Shown here in pieces: positions 20,703 to 27,688 of a DNA stretch of 63,685 bases. The stretch covers positions 1-63,685 of the forward strand of contig JAHAYO010000103.1 of NCBI GenBank assembly GCA_018384595.1, given 5' to 3'. Source of the DNA: Thiopseudomonas sp. (GTDB lineage: Bacteria > Pseudomonadota > Gammaproteobacteria > Pseudomonadales > Pseudomonadaceae). The stretch's first letter is position 1, and every line of letters begins with the position of its first letter. The notes beneath the pieces are model-generated. The model had not been told where the DNA came from. It worked only from the letters and a program-made list of their open reading frames with translations, and did no database searches. Both the position numbers and the translations under genes were made by a program.

Positions 20703-21215
20703 ATGGCAACACTGAAATTTGGCAAATTGACTGCCCTGTCACTGGCCCTGCTGTTCGCAGTGGGCTGTACCTCCAAAGGCGGCGACGCCGCCGGTAACGA
20801 AACCCTGGATCCCAATGCTGGCCTCAACGGTGGTGTTGCGGGCGGTGCGGGTTACGGCAGCGAATTTGACAGCAGCAGCGAAGCTGCTCTGCGCGCCATC
20901 AAAACCTTCTACTTCGAGTTCGACAGCTCCGACCTCAAACCTGAAGCCATGCGTGCTCTGGACGTACACGCTCGCGACCTGAAAGGCAACGGCCGTCGTG
21001 TTGTTCTGGAAGGCCACACTGACGAGCGCGGCACCCGCGAGTACAACATGGCGCTAGGCGAGCGTCGTGCCAAGGCCGTTCAGCGCTACATGGTGCTGCA
21101 GGGTGTTTCCCCAGCACAGCTAGAGCTGGTGTCCTACGGTGAAGAGCGTCCGGTTGCTGGCGGCCACAGCGAGGCTGATTGGGCCCAGAACCGCCGCGTA
21201 GAGCTGCGTGACTAA
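20703..21215 (+). CDS. pal: Peptidoglycan-associated lipoprotein Pal (OprL)
   Basis: Pal is an outer-membrane lipoprotein that binds meso-diaminopimelate of peptidoglycan through an OmpA-like domain. The lipobox AVGC puts the acylated Cys at residue 22; residues just after it are Gly/Asn/Asp-rich. The OmpA domain (about 65-170) contains the [22 protein letters not shown] peptidoglycan-binding segment. At 170 aa it matches OprL of Pseudomonas. Confidence 0.97.
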
Positions 21216-23234: not shown

Positions 23235-23266
23235 AAAAGCCCCGCTCAGCTGTGCGGGGCTTTTTT
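23235..23266 (+). terminator. Rho-independent terminator of nadA
   Basis: A perfect stem AAAAGCCCCGC/GCGGGGCTTTT with an 8-nt loop and a T6 run, 20 bp after the nadA stop. Confidence 0.93.
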
Positions 23267-23432: not shown

Positions 23433-23456
23433 ATTATGTGTCCTGGTTCACATAAT
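23433..23456. promoter_or_regulatory. Palindromic operator (CRP/Vfr-like) before the GGDEF-YfiR-TonB operon
   Basis: ATTATGTG-N8-CACATAAT is a perfect 8-bp inverted repeat. Its core reads TGTGT-CCTGGT-TCACA, one base from the CRP/Vfr consensus TGTGA-N6-TCACA. It lies 55 bp before the diguanylate cyclase ATG and overlaps a possible TTGCGC-18-CATAAT promoter (23427-23456). The assignment to CRP/Vfr is an inference; another dimeric regulator could use it. Confidence 0.6.
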
Positions 23457-23511
23457 ATTTAAAAATGGCCCTTCGCTGGCCGCCCGCCGACCCGCCCGGG
23501 TGTGCAGACTG

Positions 23512-24801
23512 ATGAAAAAACTCTTCAATCGCCTGTCCATACGCTACAAGCTGACCGTATTGATGGGCGGTGGCTCTGTTGCGGGCTTATTATTTTCCGG
23601 TATCTTGCTGTTCTCGCTGGTATTGGCCGCTGAGCGAGACGCTTCTATACGCACTCTGCATCAACTGGCTGGCATGGCTGCTGAAAATTTGCGTGCGGCG
23701 CTGGCCTTTGATGACAGCGAGAGTGCCAGCAGTATGCTGGCAGCGTTGCGCAGCCATCCGCATATCCAGCTGGCGCTGGTGGATGCCAAAAACGGTACCC
23801 TGCTGGGCAGTTACCGCCACCCAGGTGTCAGTCCCGGGTTGTTTGACCAGCTGCGCCAGCACATGTATGCCCGTCACCAAGCCGCTGATGCAGCAGGCTG
23901 GGGAGAGGGAACGGTCGTGCAGGACATGACGCAGCATTATCATTATGTTGTGCACCCGATTGAGCTGGATAATGAGCATCTGGGCATCATTGCTATCGTA
24001 GCCGACAACCAGGCCTTGCTGGAAAAAATGCAGCACCTGCTACTGGCTCTACTGGTGGCTTCTCTGTTGCTGCTGGGGTTCTTGTTCTTGGTCTCGCTGC
24101 GCTTGCAGAGGGTGTTTACCCGCCCTGTGCTAGACCTAGTGCACACCATGCGGCGCATTGGCAAAGACAAGGACTATGGCATACGTCTCGATAATCCCTA
24201 CCAGGATGAGTTTGGTGAGCTGTACCAGGGCTTTAACGGCATGTTGCAGGGCATTCATGAGCGTGACGAGCGCCTCAGCGAGCAAGCCAGTACTGATACC
24301 CTGACGGGCCTGGCCAACCGGCGTTTTGCCGCCGACCGTTTTGTCGTGAAACGTGAGCGCAGCCTGCGCAAGCAGGAGCCGTTGGGCGTTATCCTGCTGG
24401 ATATTGACCACTTCAAACAGGTCAATGACACCTGGGGACATGCTGCGGGTGACCGTGTGCTGCAGGATATTTCTCATATTTTACAGGCCTGCGCACGCCC
24501 CTATGACTTGTCGGTACGCCTGGGGGGTGAAGAGTTTATGTTGCTGTGCGATAACGCCGGCCCCGAGGTGATTCGGGCGGTGGCCGAGCGTATCCGGCGG
24601 GCCGTTGAAGCCCACACCTGTGTGCTGGATAACAGGCAGAGCATCAGCATTACTGCAAGCCTGGGTTGCTGCACGTGTGTGGTGAGTGCTGATGCCGGTG
24701 CGGACCTGATGCAGGAGATGATTGATTGCGCAGACAGGGCCCTGTACCGCGCTAAACATGGCGGTCGCAACCGTGTGGAAGTGGCGCCGCTATGGCCTTG
24801 A
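23512..24801 (+). CDS. Membrane-bound diguanylate cyclase (YfiN-like architecture)
   Basis: A c-di-GMP synthase of 429 aa. Helix one (about 15-40) and helix two (about 173-200) enclose a periplasmic sensor region resembling the CHASE8/YfiN type, then a HAMP segment (about 200-260) and a GGDEF domain (about 262-425). The active site is GGEEF and an inhibitory RxxD site (RPYD) stands five residues before it, so catalysis and product inhibition look intact. The ATG at 23512 lacks a clear Shine-Dalgarno sequence. It overlaps the YfiR-like gene by 10 nt, suggesting control by that periplasmic protein. Confidence 0.92.
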   Translation: MKKLFNRLSIRYKLTVLMGGGSVAGLLFSGILLFSLVLAAERDASIRTLHQLAGMAAENLRAALAFDDSESASSMLAALRSHPHIQLALVDAKNGTLLGSYRHPGVSPGLFDQLRQHMYARHQAADAAGWGEGTVVQDMTQHYHYVVHPIELDNEHLGIIAIVADNQALLEKMQHLLLALLVASLLLLGFLFLVSLRLQRVFTRPVLDLVHTMRRIGKDKDYGIRLDNPYQDEFGELYQGFNGMLQGIHERDERLSEQASTDTLTGLANRRFAADRFVVKRERSLRKQEPLGVILLDIDHFKQVNDTWGHAAGDRVLQDISHILQACARPYDLSVRLGGEEFMLLCDNAGPEVIRAVAERIRRAVEAHTCVLDNRQSISITASLGCCTCVVSADAGADLMQEMIDCADRALYRAKHGGRNRVEVAPLWP

Positions 24802-25325
24802 ACGTACGCGGGCTGCTCGGGTTGGCTATGCTGCTGTTTACAGCACAGGCCTGGGGAAGTGATACCGAGCAGCGCTTGATGGCAGTGTATCTGGGTCGTT
24901 TTGCTGAATATGTGCAGTTCCCGCCCGTGCGCCAAGAGCAGGCGGAGTTTGTGATTGCCGTGCTGGGGCCTGACCCGTTTGGGGGGCAATTGCAGGTTCT
25001 GTATAAAGAGCGCCCGATCAACAAAAAAAAGGTACGTATCGTGCAAGCAGCATCTTTGCAGGATGTTCCCCCCTGTGATTTGCTGTACGTCAACCTGCTT
25101 ACTCAGGCCGCCCGTGATGCTGCCCTTGTGTTTGCTGCGCAGCATCAGATCCTAACCGTCAGCAATGCGCGCGGTTTTGCTGCCAGGGGTGGCATCATCC
25201 AGATCGGATTTGTCGAGCAGCAAGCCAGAATAACCATCAATCACACAGCTGCCGTTCGCAACGGGCTCCAGATCCGGGCGCCTTTATTGTCCATTGCCAC
25301 CGTGTTGCAGGGAGAACAACCATGA
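24792..25325 (+). CDS. YfiR-family (DUF4154) periplasmic protein
   Basis: This 177-aa protein has a signal peptide (about 1-22, ending AQAWG) and a DUF4154/YfiR domain: RFAEYVQFPP near the start, CDLLYVN, ILTVSNARGFAARGGIIQIGF, then NHTAAVRNGLQIRAPLLSIA. YfiR of P. aeruginosa represses the diguanylate cyclase YfiN from the periplasm. Here the gene is coupled to a GGDEF protein of matching architecture (10-nt overlap) and to a TonB receptor (4-nt overlap), so regulation of the cyclase is a reasonable inference. The redox-sensing Cys pattern of YfiR is not evident: one Cys is visible in the mature part. Confidence 0.88.
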   Translation: MALNVRGLLGLAMLLFTAQAWGSDTEQRLMAVYLGRFAEYVQFPPVRQEQAEFVIAVLGPDPFGGQLQVLYKERPINKKKVRIVQAASLQDVPPCDLLYVNLLTQAARDAALVFAAQHQILTVSNARGFAARGGIIQIGFVEQQARITINHTAAVRNGLQIRAPLLSIATVLQGEQP

Positions 25326-27688
25326 GGCGCTTGATACTTCTATTGCTGGCCTTCTGTCAGGTTGCTGTGGCTGGCACCGGCCAGCCCGATGCCGACTGGT
25401 ACAACATGGATCTGCAAAGCTTGCTGCAGGTGCGCACGCCACCCAAGGCCCAGGTGGGCTCGCGGCACGGTTTGCTTAGCGTAAAAAATACGGCGGTACC
25501 GGTGGATGTCTACACTGCCGAGCAATTGATGGCCACGGGTGAAATCGAACTGGCGCGTGCGCTGGCGGCGCTGGTGCCGGGTTTCAACTACCCGCGCCCG
25601 TCGATTGCTGACGGTACCGACCACGCGCCGCCGTTCACCCTGCGCACATTGCAGCCCGATCAGGTGCTGGTGCTGGTCAATGGTAAACGGTTGCATCAAG
25701 GTTCGCTACTGCACAACAACGGCACTATTGGTCGTGGCAGCTCCGGCACCGATCTGAACACTATTGCGCTGCTGGCCGTTGAGCGGGTGGAGGTGTTGCG
25801 TGACGGCGCGGCGGCGCAGTATGGTTCCGACGCGATTGCCGGCATTGTAAATATCATCCTCAAGGGGTACGGGCAAACGCATCAGGGCCTGTATCAGTGG
25901 GGGCGCACCTACAAAAAGGACGGTCTGGCTCGGCATGTCGAGGTGATGGCGGCCTTGCCGCTGGCGGGTGACGGTTTTGCCAACCTGGTGGTATCGCGCC
26001 GGGACCGCGGGGAGAGTAACCGTGCCTATACCGCAGCGCGGGATGGCGGGCGAACCAGACTGCATTTTGGTGACGCCCAAGTGCTGGACGAGAGCCTGAC
26101 ATTTAATGCCGAACTGCCTGGAGCGGATACTTTGCTGTATGCCCATGGCCATTACAACCAGCGCCAAAGCAGTGCTGGAGCGCTTTACCGTTATGCCGAT
26201 GATGACCGTAACCTGCCTGAGCTGTACCCCGATGGTTTTTTGCCGAGCATCGAACCGCGTATCCGCGATTATTCGGCCACCCTGGGCATCAAGGGTGTTC
26301 TGGACAGTGGTGCCAGCTGGGATCTGAGTTATACCCGTGGTGAAAACGATTACCACTTTTATGTACGCAATTCGCTCAACCGTTCACTGGGCATCAATAG
26401 CCCGCGCAGTTTTGACAGCGGCAGCACCCGCCTGAACCAAGATACCCTGAGCTTTGACATGAACCAGCACTTTGGCGCGCACAGCCTGAGTGCTGGCTAC
26501 GAGCTGCGTCGTGAGCACTACCGGATCAGGGCGGGCGACTCCGCGTCCTATCTACTGGGGCCGTATTCGACCCAGTATCCCGGAGCCCAGGGATTTGGCG
26601 GTTTTTCACCGGATAATACCGTGAGCGCCAGTCGTCTGAGCCAGGCCTTGTATGTGGATTTCAAATATGTACCGGTGGCCGGCCTGACCCTTGGCACGGC
26701 GGCGCGTACTGAACATTTCAGCGATTTTGGCAATACCCTCAACGGCAAGCTGTCACTGCACTATCAACCGGTGGAGCAGTGGCAGCTCAGAGGCAGCCTG
26801 AGCAGCGGTTTCCGTGCGCCTTCTTTGAGTCAGGCCAATTTCAGCTCGACCAGCATGATTAACGGGGGGGGCGGGCTTGTTCAAACAGGTAATTTCCGCG
26901 TGGACCATCCAGTGGCTAGAGCACTGGGTGCTGATGACCTCAAACCTGAAAAATCAGCGCACTTTACGCTGGGTGCTGTCTGGCAACCTGTGGCAAGCAT
27001 GAGCCTGAGTGCCGACTGGTTTGTGACTGACATCCGCAACCGCATCATGGCGACCAGTTATATTGAGGCCGATACAGTGCCGCAAGCCAAAGACATACTG
27101 GAACAATATGGTGTGGGGAGTGCGGTATATTTTACTAATGCTGTTGGCACCCGTACCCAGGGCTATGACGTGCGGCTTGACTATCAGGATGAACTGTCCA
27201 ACGGACACCTGTGGCAGATACAGGCGGCTTTTCAGCAGGCCAAAACACGTATCAACCGAGTCAACCGCGCCCCTGATGTTCTGGGCGTTGATATGAATGA
27301 GCTGGTCTTGGACCCGTTTACGCGGGTAACGCTGGAGCAAGGACAGCCGCAGCATGCGTTCAGCCTGTGGGGCCACTACAGGACGCCGGCCTTTGCCCTG
27401 AGTTTGGGCCTGCGTCGTCATGGTAGTTATGCCAGCACCTATGGCGATCAGACAGTGCGCTTTGCCGCACGCTGGGTGCTGGACCCGCAAATCAGCTTTA
27501 ATCTGGGCCGCCACGCTACGCTGGCGGTGGGTGCCACCAATCTGCTCAACAGCAGGCCCCAACAATGGGCGGCAACAGGCGAGGACGAACCCCTGCACGG
27601 AAAAGGCAAACCGGTTGCCTATTCCCAGTATGCGCCCTACGGGTACAACGGCAGAACCTGGTACCTGCGCTTGGGGGCGCGCTTCTGA
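25322..27688 (+). CDS. TonB-dependent outer-membrane receptor
   Basis: An outer-membrane TonB-dependent receptor of 788 aa: signal peptide (about 1-17), plug domain (about 50-180, with LVLVNGKRLHQGS and the VERVEVLRDGAAAQYGSDAIAGIVNI signature), a 22-strand beta-barrel and the terminal aromatic residue (ARF). There is no N-terminal STN signalling domain, so classical FecI/FecR surface signalling is not expected. The ligand cannot be read from the sequence. Its start overlaps the YfiR-like stop, linking the receptor to a c-di-GMP module. Confidence 0.93.
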   Translation: MRRLILLLLAFCQVAVAGTGQPDADWYNMDLQSLLQVRTPPKAQVGSRHGLLSVKNTAVPVDVYTAEQLMATGEIELARALAALVPGFNYPRPSIADGTDHAPPFTLRTLQPDQVLVLVNGKRLHQGSLLHNNGTIGRGSSGTDLNTIALLAVERVEVLRDGAAAQYGSDAIAGIVNIILKGYGQTHQGLYQWGRTYKKDGLARHVEVMAALPLAGDGFANLVVSRRDRGESNRAYTAARDGGRTRLHFGDAQVLDESLTFNAELPGADTLLYAHGHYNQRQSSAGALYRYADDDRNLPELYPDGFLPSIEPRIRDYSATLGIKGVLDSGASWDLSYTRGENDYHFYVRNSLNRSLGINSPRSFDSGSTRLNQDTLSFDMNQHFGAHSLSAGYELRREHYRIRAGDSASYLLGPYSTQYPGAQGFGGFSPDNTVSASRLSQALYVDFKYVPVAGLTLGTAARTEHFSDFGNTLNGKLSLHYQPVEQWQLRGSLSSGFRAPSLSQANFSSTSMINGGGGLVQTGNFRVDHPVARALGADDLKPEKSAHFTLGAVWQPVASMSLSADWFVTDIRNRIMATSYIEADTVPQAKDILEQYGVGSAVYFTNAVGTRTQGYDVRLDYQDELSNGHLWQIQAAFQQAKTRINRVNRAPDVLGVDMNELVLDPFTRVTLEQGQPQHAFSLWGHYRTPAFALSLGLRRHGSYASTYGDQTVRFAARWVLDPQISFNLGRHATLAVGATNLLNSRPQQWAATGEDEPLHGKGKPVAYSQYAPYGYNGRTWYLRLGARF

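What the first reader, a model, noticed from the sequence alone, without database searches (positions are those of the whole stretch)
23433..27688. Operon joining a diguanylate cyclase, a YfiR-like periplasmic protein and a TonB receptor
Three genes overlap at stop/start codons (10 nt and 4 nt), so they are co-translated. The cyclase has a YfiN-like layout with an intact GGEEF and RxxD site. YfiR is known to inhibit YfiN in P. aeruginosa, where the third gene is yfiB, an outer-membrane lipoprotein. Here a TonB-dependent receptor takes that place. Inference: ligand status at the outer membrane may set c-di-GMP through the YfiR-like protein, a signalling route without an STN/FecR pair.
Basis: partly seen in the sequence, partly recalled or inferred. 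Interest (0 to 1): 0.72.

Follow-up and report, generated by a model that had tools for sequence, protein, structure and literature searches.

The report
Outer-membrane receptor wired to c-di-GMP enzyme
Three overlapping genes encode an outer-membrane receptor, a periplasmic go-between and an inner-membrane enzyme that makes the signal c-di-GMP; the receptor and go-between recur together across distant bacteria with different signalling enzymes, so they probably form an exchangeable relay that carries outside information into the cell.

Summary
The operon is real: CHASE8-HAMP-GGDEF cyclase (23512-24801), YfiR/DUF4154 protein (24792-25325) and TonB-dependent receptor (25322-27688), overlapping by 10 and 4 nt. 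The linkage is conserved. The ten closest receptors in 84,980 species genomes all have YfiR directly upstream; 69 more distant ones have none. The relatives are Thiopseudomonas, Comamonas, Paenacidovorax, Zoogloea, Rhodocyclaceae, Rhodoferax, Methylococcaceae, Mariprofundaceae and Sulfurimonas. The output changes while the pair stays: GGDEF, histidine kinase or SpoIIE phosphatase. In the wider order, 44 of 120 YfiR genes sit in operon-like clusters with a TonB receptor and only 6 with YfiB. The window's YfiR is not in the YfiB-linked clade, so this is not YfiBNR with one gene swapped. New here: YfiR-linked receptors share an N-terminal peptide (LSLEELMNIEV; DLQSLLQV in the window). It is absent from 50 receptors of YfiR-less genomes, but present on five unrelated barrels next to YfiR. 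I propose that it docks YfiR, as YfiB's N-terminal segment does. The YfiR-receptor-kinase set is already a curated NCBIfam group, and a related receptor (OmpS) is reported to sense alkanes, so this is a new variant. Ligand and signalling direction are unknown.

The parts
23235..23266 (+). Intrinsic-terminator-like hairpin after nadA, separating it from the triad
   Evidence: Sequence GCCCCGCTCAGCTGTGCGGGGC + TTTTTT; 11-pair stem, -20.5 kcal/mol
23512..24801 (+). Membrane diguanylate cyclase: CHASE8 periplasmic sensor, HAMP, GGDEF (GGEEF at 24523-24537)
   Evidence: Pfam CHASE8 52.6, HAMP 37.8, GGDEF 146.7 bits; best NCBIfam hit DgcN/YfiN 188.8 bits, below cut-off 325; start chosen from relatives L108/L110
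24792..25325 (+). YfiR/HmsC-like (DUF4154) periplasmic protein
   Evidence: Pfam DUF4154 106.5 bits; AF2 model pLDDT 93.1, Foldseek best match P. aeruginosa YfiR 4zhu/4yn7, TM 0.6-0.8; lacks family Trp43 and Cys56
25322..27688 (+). TonB-dependent receptor, no STN domain
   Evidence: Pfam Plug 69.7 and barrel 130.5 bits; AF2 pLDDT 81.7, nearest solved folds Cir, PfeA, FepA, BtuB
25397..25465 (+). Receptor N-terminal peptide WYNMDLQSLLQVRTPPKAQVGSR (residues 26-48), proposed YfiR-docking element
   Evidence: Equivalent peptide in all 13 YfiR-linked receptors of this type, absent from 50 receptors of YfiR-less genomes; disordered with a short helix 31-36 in the model

Best explanation
A three-part trans-envelope signalling operon. 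The TonB-dependent receptor acts as an outer-membrane sensor (or transporter-sensor). Its free N-terminal peptide, which lies in the periplasm just before the plug, docks onto the YfiR-like protein. The YfiR-like protein is a periplasmic relay that otherwise acts on the CHASE8 domain of the cyclase. Ligand binding or TonB-driven transport would change how available the peptide is, and so shift YfiR between receptor and cyclase and change c-di-GMP synthesis. By analogy with YfiBNR, free YfiR would inhibit the cyclase and receptor-bound YfiR would release it. The relay is modular: the same receptor-YfiR pair is found with a cyclase, histidine kinase or SpoIIE phosphatase, and YfiR more widely with chemoreceptors and other outer-membrane barrels. 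SHOWN by sequence: operon, conserved linkage, output exchange, shared N-terminal peptide, YfiR fold. INFERRED: peptide-YfiR contact, inhibition, sign of the response, ligand control, effect on c-di-GMP.
For: (1) Ten of ten nearest receptors have YfiR directly upstream, nine with an ATGA-type 4-nt overlap; 0 of 69 more distant homologues have YfiR within 4.5 kb. (2) Outputs swap beside the pair: GGDEF, HK-RR, CHASE8-SpoIIE, with a CHASE8 sensor half kept; across all loci 101 of 114 effectors near YfiR carry this sensor half. (3) In the order, 44 of 120 YfiR loci have a TonB receptor in the same cluster, mostly overlapping, although genomes hold only 3-54 receptors. (4) Motif PSSM >13 bits: 38/38 linked receptors vs 0/50 in YfiR-less genomes. 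(5) The four top-scoring ORFs of 1197 unrelated ones, and five of the top six, are non-receptor barrels directly upstream of YfiR. (6) DUF4154 is fused to histidine kinases in three loci. (7) In P. aeruginosa, YfiB's N-terminal segment (F48, W55, F57) wraps YfiR, and the proposed YfiN site overlaps that surface (PMC4887326). (8) TOL_0244, a YfiR-linked receptor type, is similar to OmpS, reported to detect alkanes and trigger chemotaxis (PMC6304351).
Against: No experiment. No complex could be modelled here. The window's peptide is a weak form (2.7 bits), recognisable mainly through its relatives. The motif ends 10-13 residues before the plug in most receptors, where a TonB box is expected, so part of it may serve TonB. 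YfiR beside ShlB-type barrels lacks any such peptide partner. The Rhodoferax locus L343 has the pair without an adjacent effector. Comparisons are not phylogenetically independent and the YfiR-less sample is 50 receptors from 12 genomes.
Confidence: 0.6

Rival explanations
1. The YfiR-like protein is a small ligand-binding protein. The receptor imports a ligand, YfiR binds it in the periplasm, and liganded YfiR signals to CHASE8, like a substrate-binding protein feeding a kinase. No receptor docking is needed.
For: After YfiR itself, Foldseek's next matches are substrate-binding proteins (5z6v, 3lkv). P. aeruginosa YfiR binds vitamin B6 or L-Trp at the YfiB site (PMC4887326). Cycloclasticus pahS-pahP-pahK, needed for PAH use, is an outer-membrane receptor, a periplasmic substrate-binding protein and a histidine kinase with consecutive locus tags (PMC8547461).
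Against: Does not explain why linked receptors and unrelated linked barrels share an N-terminal peptide.
Confidence: 0.2
2. Ordinary YfiBNR-type repression, with the receptor only a co-regulated passenger: YfiR controls the cyclase in response to envelope or redox stress and the receptor imports a nutrient.
For: Cyclase layout is YfiN-like, and YfiR alone represses YfiN in P. aeruginosa (PMC2837407).
Against: Receptor and YfiR stay together while the output changes. The conserved disulfide Cys is missing in window-type YfiR, which argues against redox sensing. No OmpA lipoprotein is in the operon.
Confidence: 0.13
3. The shared N-terminal peptide is a subtype of TonB box or an export feature of one receptor lineage, unrelated to YfiR, and the co-occurrence is shared ancestry.
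For: Near-constant spacing of 10-13 residues to the plug.
Against: Found on five barrels that are not TonB receptors but are next to YfiR, on receptors of at least three different subfamilies (window type, L133 type, TOL_0244 type), and absent from window-type homologues without YfiR.
Confidence: 0.07

Closest known systems
YfiBNR (TpbB) system of Pseudomonas aeruginosa; HmsCDE of Yersinia pestis
   Same: Periplasmic DUF4154 protein, membrane diguanylate cyclase with periplasmic sensor and HAMP, outer-membrane partner encoded in one operon
   Different: Outer-membrane partner is a TonB receptor, not an OmpA-type lipoprotein; gene order differs; YfiR in a separate clade; output can be a kinase or phosphatase in close relatives; conserved disulfide lost
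NCBIfam TOL_0243 / TOL_0244 / 'HK near YfiR-like' set (NF053591, NF053590, NF053592)
   Same: YfiR-like protein plus TonB receptor plus CHASE8-type membrane sensor protein in one operon; order-level relative L050 meets the YfiR-like and receptor cut-offs
   Different: Window proteins are below all three cut-offs (93<125; 37<645; 124<194); receptor is from another subfamily; output is GGDEF; order is effector-YfiR-receptor
OmpS of Alcanivorax dieselolei (alkane sensing), as described in PMC6304351
   Same: TonB-type receptor with a reported signalling role; similar to the YfiR-linked receptor TOL_0244
   Different: Receptor subfamily, effector and ligand; YfiR involvement not described in the text read
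STN/FecR/sigma cell-surface signalling (FecA, FpvA)
   Same: TonB receptor passes outside information inward through a periplasmic N-terminal element
   Different: No STN domain, FecR or ECF sigma factor; periplasmic relay is YfiR-like and output is a second-messenger enzyme

Membership tests
YfiBNR tripartite system | DUF4154 YfiR protein in operon with the cyclase | tested here: met
   PF13689 106.5 bits, overlapping ORFs; YfiR fold, TM 0.6-0.8 to 4zhu/4yn7
YfiBNR tripartite system | Meets the NCBIfam sequestering-YfiR model and lies in the YfiB-linked clade | tested here: not met
   24.4 bits vs cut-off 85, while L116, a YfiB-linked YfiR, scores 191.8; separate clades, supports 0.875 and 1.0
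YfiBNR tripartite system | OmpA/Pal-like lipoprotein YfiB in the operon | tested here: not met
   Third gene is a TonB receptor. The Pal gene upstream (20703-21215) belongs to the tol-pal cluster
YfiBNR tripartite system | YfiR represses the cyclase and the outer-membrane partner relieves it | not testable with these tools
   Needs mutants and c-di-GMP assays
NCBIfam TOL_0243/TOL_0244/HK set | YfiR-like and receptor above equivalog cut-offs | tested here: not met
   93.1<125 and 37.4<645
NCBIfam TOL_0243/TOL_0244/HK set | YfiR-like gene adjacent to TonB receptor and CHASE8-type effector | tested here: met
NCBIfam TOL_0243/TOL_0244/HK set | Receptor carries the N-terminal LSLEELMNIEV-type peptide | tested here: inconclusive
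   L050 (TOL_0244 member) has LASLSLESLMNIDVV at 34 bits; window has diverged DLQSLLQV, 2.7 bits, but clear in relatives such as L338, 18.6 bits
STN/FecR cell-surface signalling | STN domain at receptor N-terminus | tested here: not met
   No STN match in Pfam scan
Active diguanylate cyclase | GG[DE]EF active site with RxxD site | tested here: met
   RPYDLSVRLGGEEF; activity itself not tested
TonB-dependent receptor | Plug and TonB-dependent barrel | tested here: met
   Pfam; AF2 model and Foldseek to Cir/PfeA/FepA

The most novel reading that the evidence does not exclude
YfiR-type proteins are a general, exchangeable outer-to-inner-membrane relay. Many outer-membrane barrels (several TonB receptor subfamilies and unrelated MetA-like barrels) acquired a short portable N-terminal docking peptide for YfiR, and CHASE8 proteins with cyclase, kinase, chemoreceptor or SpoIIE outputs read YfiR. 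This would be a route for outer-membrane receptors to signal that is distinct from STN/FecR.
Probability: 0.45. Interest if true: 0.82.

Novelty: new variant of a known kind. Interest (0 to 1): 0.66.

Why it matters
How outer-membrane receptors without an STN domain report what they bind has little description in the literature held here. If the relay is real, dozens of orphan TonB receptors, cyclases, kinases and chemoreceptors gain a partner and a testable input. The signal entering YfiN-type cyclases becomes an outside ligand rather than unspecified envelope stress, and a short peptide gives a simple sequence mark for finding such receptors and a handle for engineering biosensors in laboratory strains.

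Tried and rejected
Rejected: 'YfiBNR with one gene replaced' (and NCBIfam scores). Rejected: c-di-GMP-only route (outputs swap). Rejected: redox sensing through the YfiR disulfide (Cys56 absent). Tried without result: ligand class of the receptor (nearest solved folds Cir, PfeA, FepA, BtuB at 14-16% identity; no shared neighbour genes seen beyond the operon); promoter (one search gives chance-level hits); papers describing a YfiR-TonB receptor system (none as a system); NCBIfam names for the window receptor (only broad sub-threshold hits). A loose regular expression for the motif was dropped as a classifier because it also hits signal peptides (14/86 unlinked, 10/50 YfiR-less). Ligand-binding-protein reading of YfiR kept as a rival. 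No complex could be co-folded with the tool offered.

Full report
WHAT IS THERE. The window carries three overlapping genes on the plus strand: a cyclase (23512-24801), a YfiR/DUF4154 protein (24792-25325) and a TonB-dependent receptor (25322-27688). Pfam assigns CHASE8, HAMP and GGDEF to the first, DUF4154 to the second, Plug and barrel to the third, and no STN domain. The GGEEF site and an RxxD five residues upstream are intact. A terminator-like hairpin lies between nadA and the triad, and the next gene downstream, an S49 peptidase, is convergent. The window lies in a 2.25-Mb genome with one DUF4154 gene.

IS THE LINKAGE REAL. In 391 genomes of the order, 122 have DUF4154. I fetched 120 stretches and called neighbours. 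Of 120 YfiR genes called, 44 have a TonB receptor in the same close-spaced, same-strand cluster, usually overlapping, and 6 have an OmpA-type lipoprotein. Receptors number only 3 to 54 per genome, so chance would give a few percent at most (estimate). In most loci the order is receptor-YfiR-effector; the window's order, effector-YfiR-receptor, is shared by L108 and L110 in its own family.

A NATURAL EXPERIMENT. A scan of one genome per 84,980 species with the window-type receptor gave 79 named loci. The ten closest (39-62% identity) are in Paenacidovorax caeni, Comamonas denitrificans, two Zoogloea, a Rhodocyclaceae, Thiopseudomonas denitrificans, a Rhodoferax, a Methylococcaceae, a Mariprofundaceae and a Sulfurimonas. 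All ten have YfiR directly upstream, nine with a 4-nt overlap. None of the other 69 (35-39% identity; Xanthomonas, Lysobacter, Pseudomonas and others) has YfiR within the flank. Several betaproteobacterial receptors are closer to the window's than those of its own family are, which suggests transfer of the operon between lineages (inference). Beside this constant pair the output changes: GGDEF in Paenacidovorax, Comamonas, Zoogloea, Rhodocyclaceae (tblastn) and Thiopseudomonas; histidine kinase plus receiver in the Methylococcaceae (divergent) and Mariprofundaceae (downstream); CHASE8-SpoIIE phosphatase in Sulfurimonas; none adjacent in Rhodoferax. The Pfam-checked outputs keep CHASE8. In the wider order the same slot also holds methyl-accepting chemotaxis proteins. 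101 of 114 effectors within two genes of YfiR share the sensor half of the window cyclase (sampling was YfiR-centred). In three loci DUF4154 is fused to a histidine kinase.

A SHARED PEPTIDE. YfiR-linked receptors begin, after the signal peptide, with LADLSLEELMNIEVT or a variant, 10-18 residues before the plug (mostly 10-13). A scoring matrix trained on 38 of them finds it in all 38 (above 13 bits) but in 0 of 50 receptors from 12 genomes without DUF4154; the leave-one-out minimum was 9.2 bits. In DUF4154-bearing genomes, 7 of 70 sampled receptors score above 20: two (L249, L263) are beside YfiR and five are elsewhere in genomes with two to four YfiR genes. Among 1197 unrelated neighbour ORFs the four best scorers, and five of the top six, are non-receptor barrels of 352-394 aa directly upstream of YfiR, one identified as a MetA-type barrel. 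Window-type receptors carry a diverged form (PLEQLLxVETQxKAxVGSR; in the window DLQSLLQVRTPPKAQVGSR), and window-type homologues without YfiR have a plain TonB-box-like LDTVIVTGTR there. The L133 receptor, of yet another subfamily, scores 26.5. So the peptide appears on different barrel families in step with YfiR linkage. In the receptor model residues 1-46 are disordered except a short helix, 31-36, inside the peptide.

HOW IT PROBABLY WORKS. In P. aeruginosa, YfiR represses YfiN and YfiB counteracts this (PMC2837407). The crystal structure shows YfiB's N-terminal segment wrapping YfiR with F48, W55 and F57 as anchors, and the proposed YfiN site overlaps it (PMC4887326). I infer that the receptor peptide plays that part. 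The window's YfiR has the YfiR fold (pLDDT 93; Foldseek to 4zhu and 4yn7). It lacks the family's Trp43 and Cys56, so redox control through that disulfide is unlikely. The main rival is that YfiR binds the imported ligand: its next structural matches are substrate-binding proteins, YfiR binds vitamin B6 or L-Trp (PMC4887326), and Cycloclasticus needs an outer-membrane receptor, a periplasmic substrate-binding protein and a histidine kinase with consecutive locus tags for PAH use (PMC8547461). The two ideas can both hold.

WHAT IS KNOWN. NCBIfam already has models for a YfiR-like protein (TOL_0243), its receptor (TOL_0244) and a YfiR-associated kinase; L050 meets the first two cut-offs and the window meets none. 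TOL_0244 rises sevenfold on C28 alkane and is similar to OmpS of Alcanivorax dieselolei, described as detecting alkanes and triggering chemotaxis (PMC6304351). No paper in the library searched describes a YfiR-TonB receptor system. The window's YfiR is in a 13-member clade of receptor-linked YfiR (support 0.875), apart from the YfiB-linked clade (1.0). I therefore file it as a new variant: YfiR-type trans-envelope signalling with a TonB receptor and exchangeable output.

LIMITS. Nothing here measures c-di-GMP, binding or direction. Samples share ancestry, and p-values (9e-26, 3e-9) are descriptive. The YfiR-less receptor sample was partly chosen by high Plug score. The motif in the window itself is weak and rests on its relatives. 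The motif sits where a TonB box would, so some of its conservation may be due to TonB.

Noticed in passing
L157:4461-6737, L158:6235-8970, L160:4148-6910: DUF4154 fused at the N-terminus of hybrid histidine kinases, with no separate YfiR needed.
   Followed up: partly
L057, L062, L072, L077, L078, L081, L082, L084, L086, L090, L094, L115: YfiR directly downstream of, or one gene from, a predicted two-partner-secretion barrel (ShlB/FhaC type in L115; the rest grouped with it by BLAST or by layout), often near a large exoprotein-like ORF. The barrels scored lack the peptide, so YfiR may have another kind of outer-membrane partner.
   Followed up: partly
L101, L102, L134, L159, L166: Non-receptor barrels of 352-394 aa (L102 matches Phenol_MetA_deg) directly upstream of YfiR that carry the LSLEEL-type N-terminal peptide.
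   Followed up: yes
L284, L285, L286 (G041); L288, L290 (G098): Peptide-bearing TonB receptors away from YfiR in genomes with two to four YfiR genes; several receptors may share one YfiR.
   Followed up: partly
L346:6674-8206: CHASE8-SpoIIE phosphatase next to the YfiR-receptor pair in a Sulfurimonas MAG, followed by small ORFs on the same strand that were not identified.
   Followed up: no
L337:3220-3963: In Paenacidovorax caeni the cyclase ORF lacks the sensor half in frame (tblastn covers residues 213-422 only), possibly a decayed gene or assembly error.
   Followed up: no
L107:3250-9305: Thiopseudomonas denitrificans has a second YfiR set: peptide-bearing receptor, YfiR, hybrid kinase, receiver-GGDEF.
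   Followed up: partly
window 24792-25325: The YfiR-like protein has Phe and Ala at positions where 98% and 90% of relatives in the order have Trp and Cys.
   Followed up: partly
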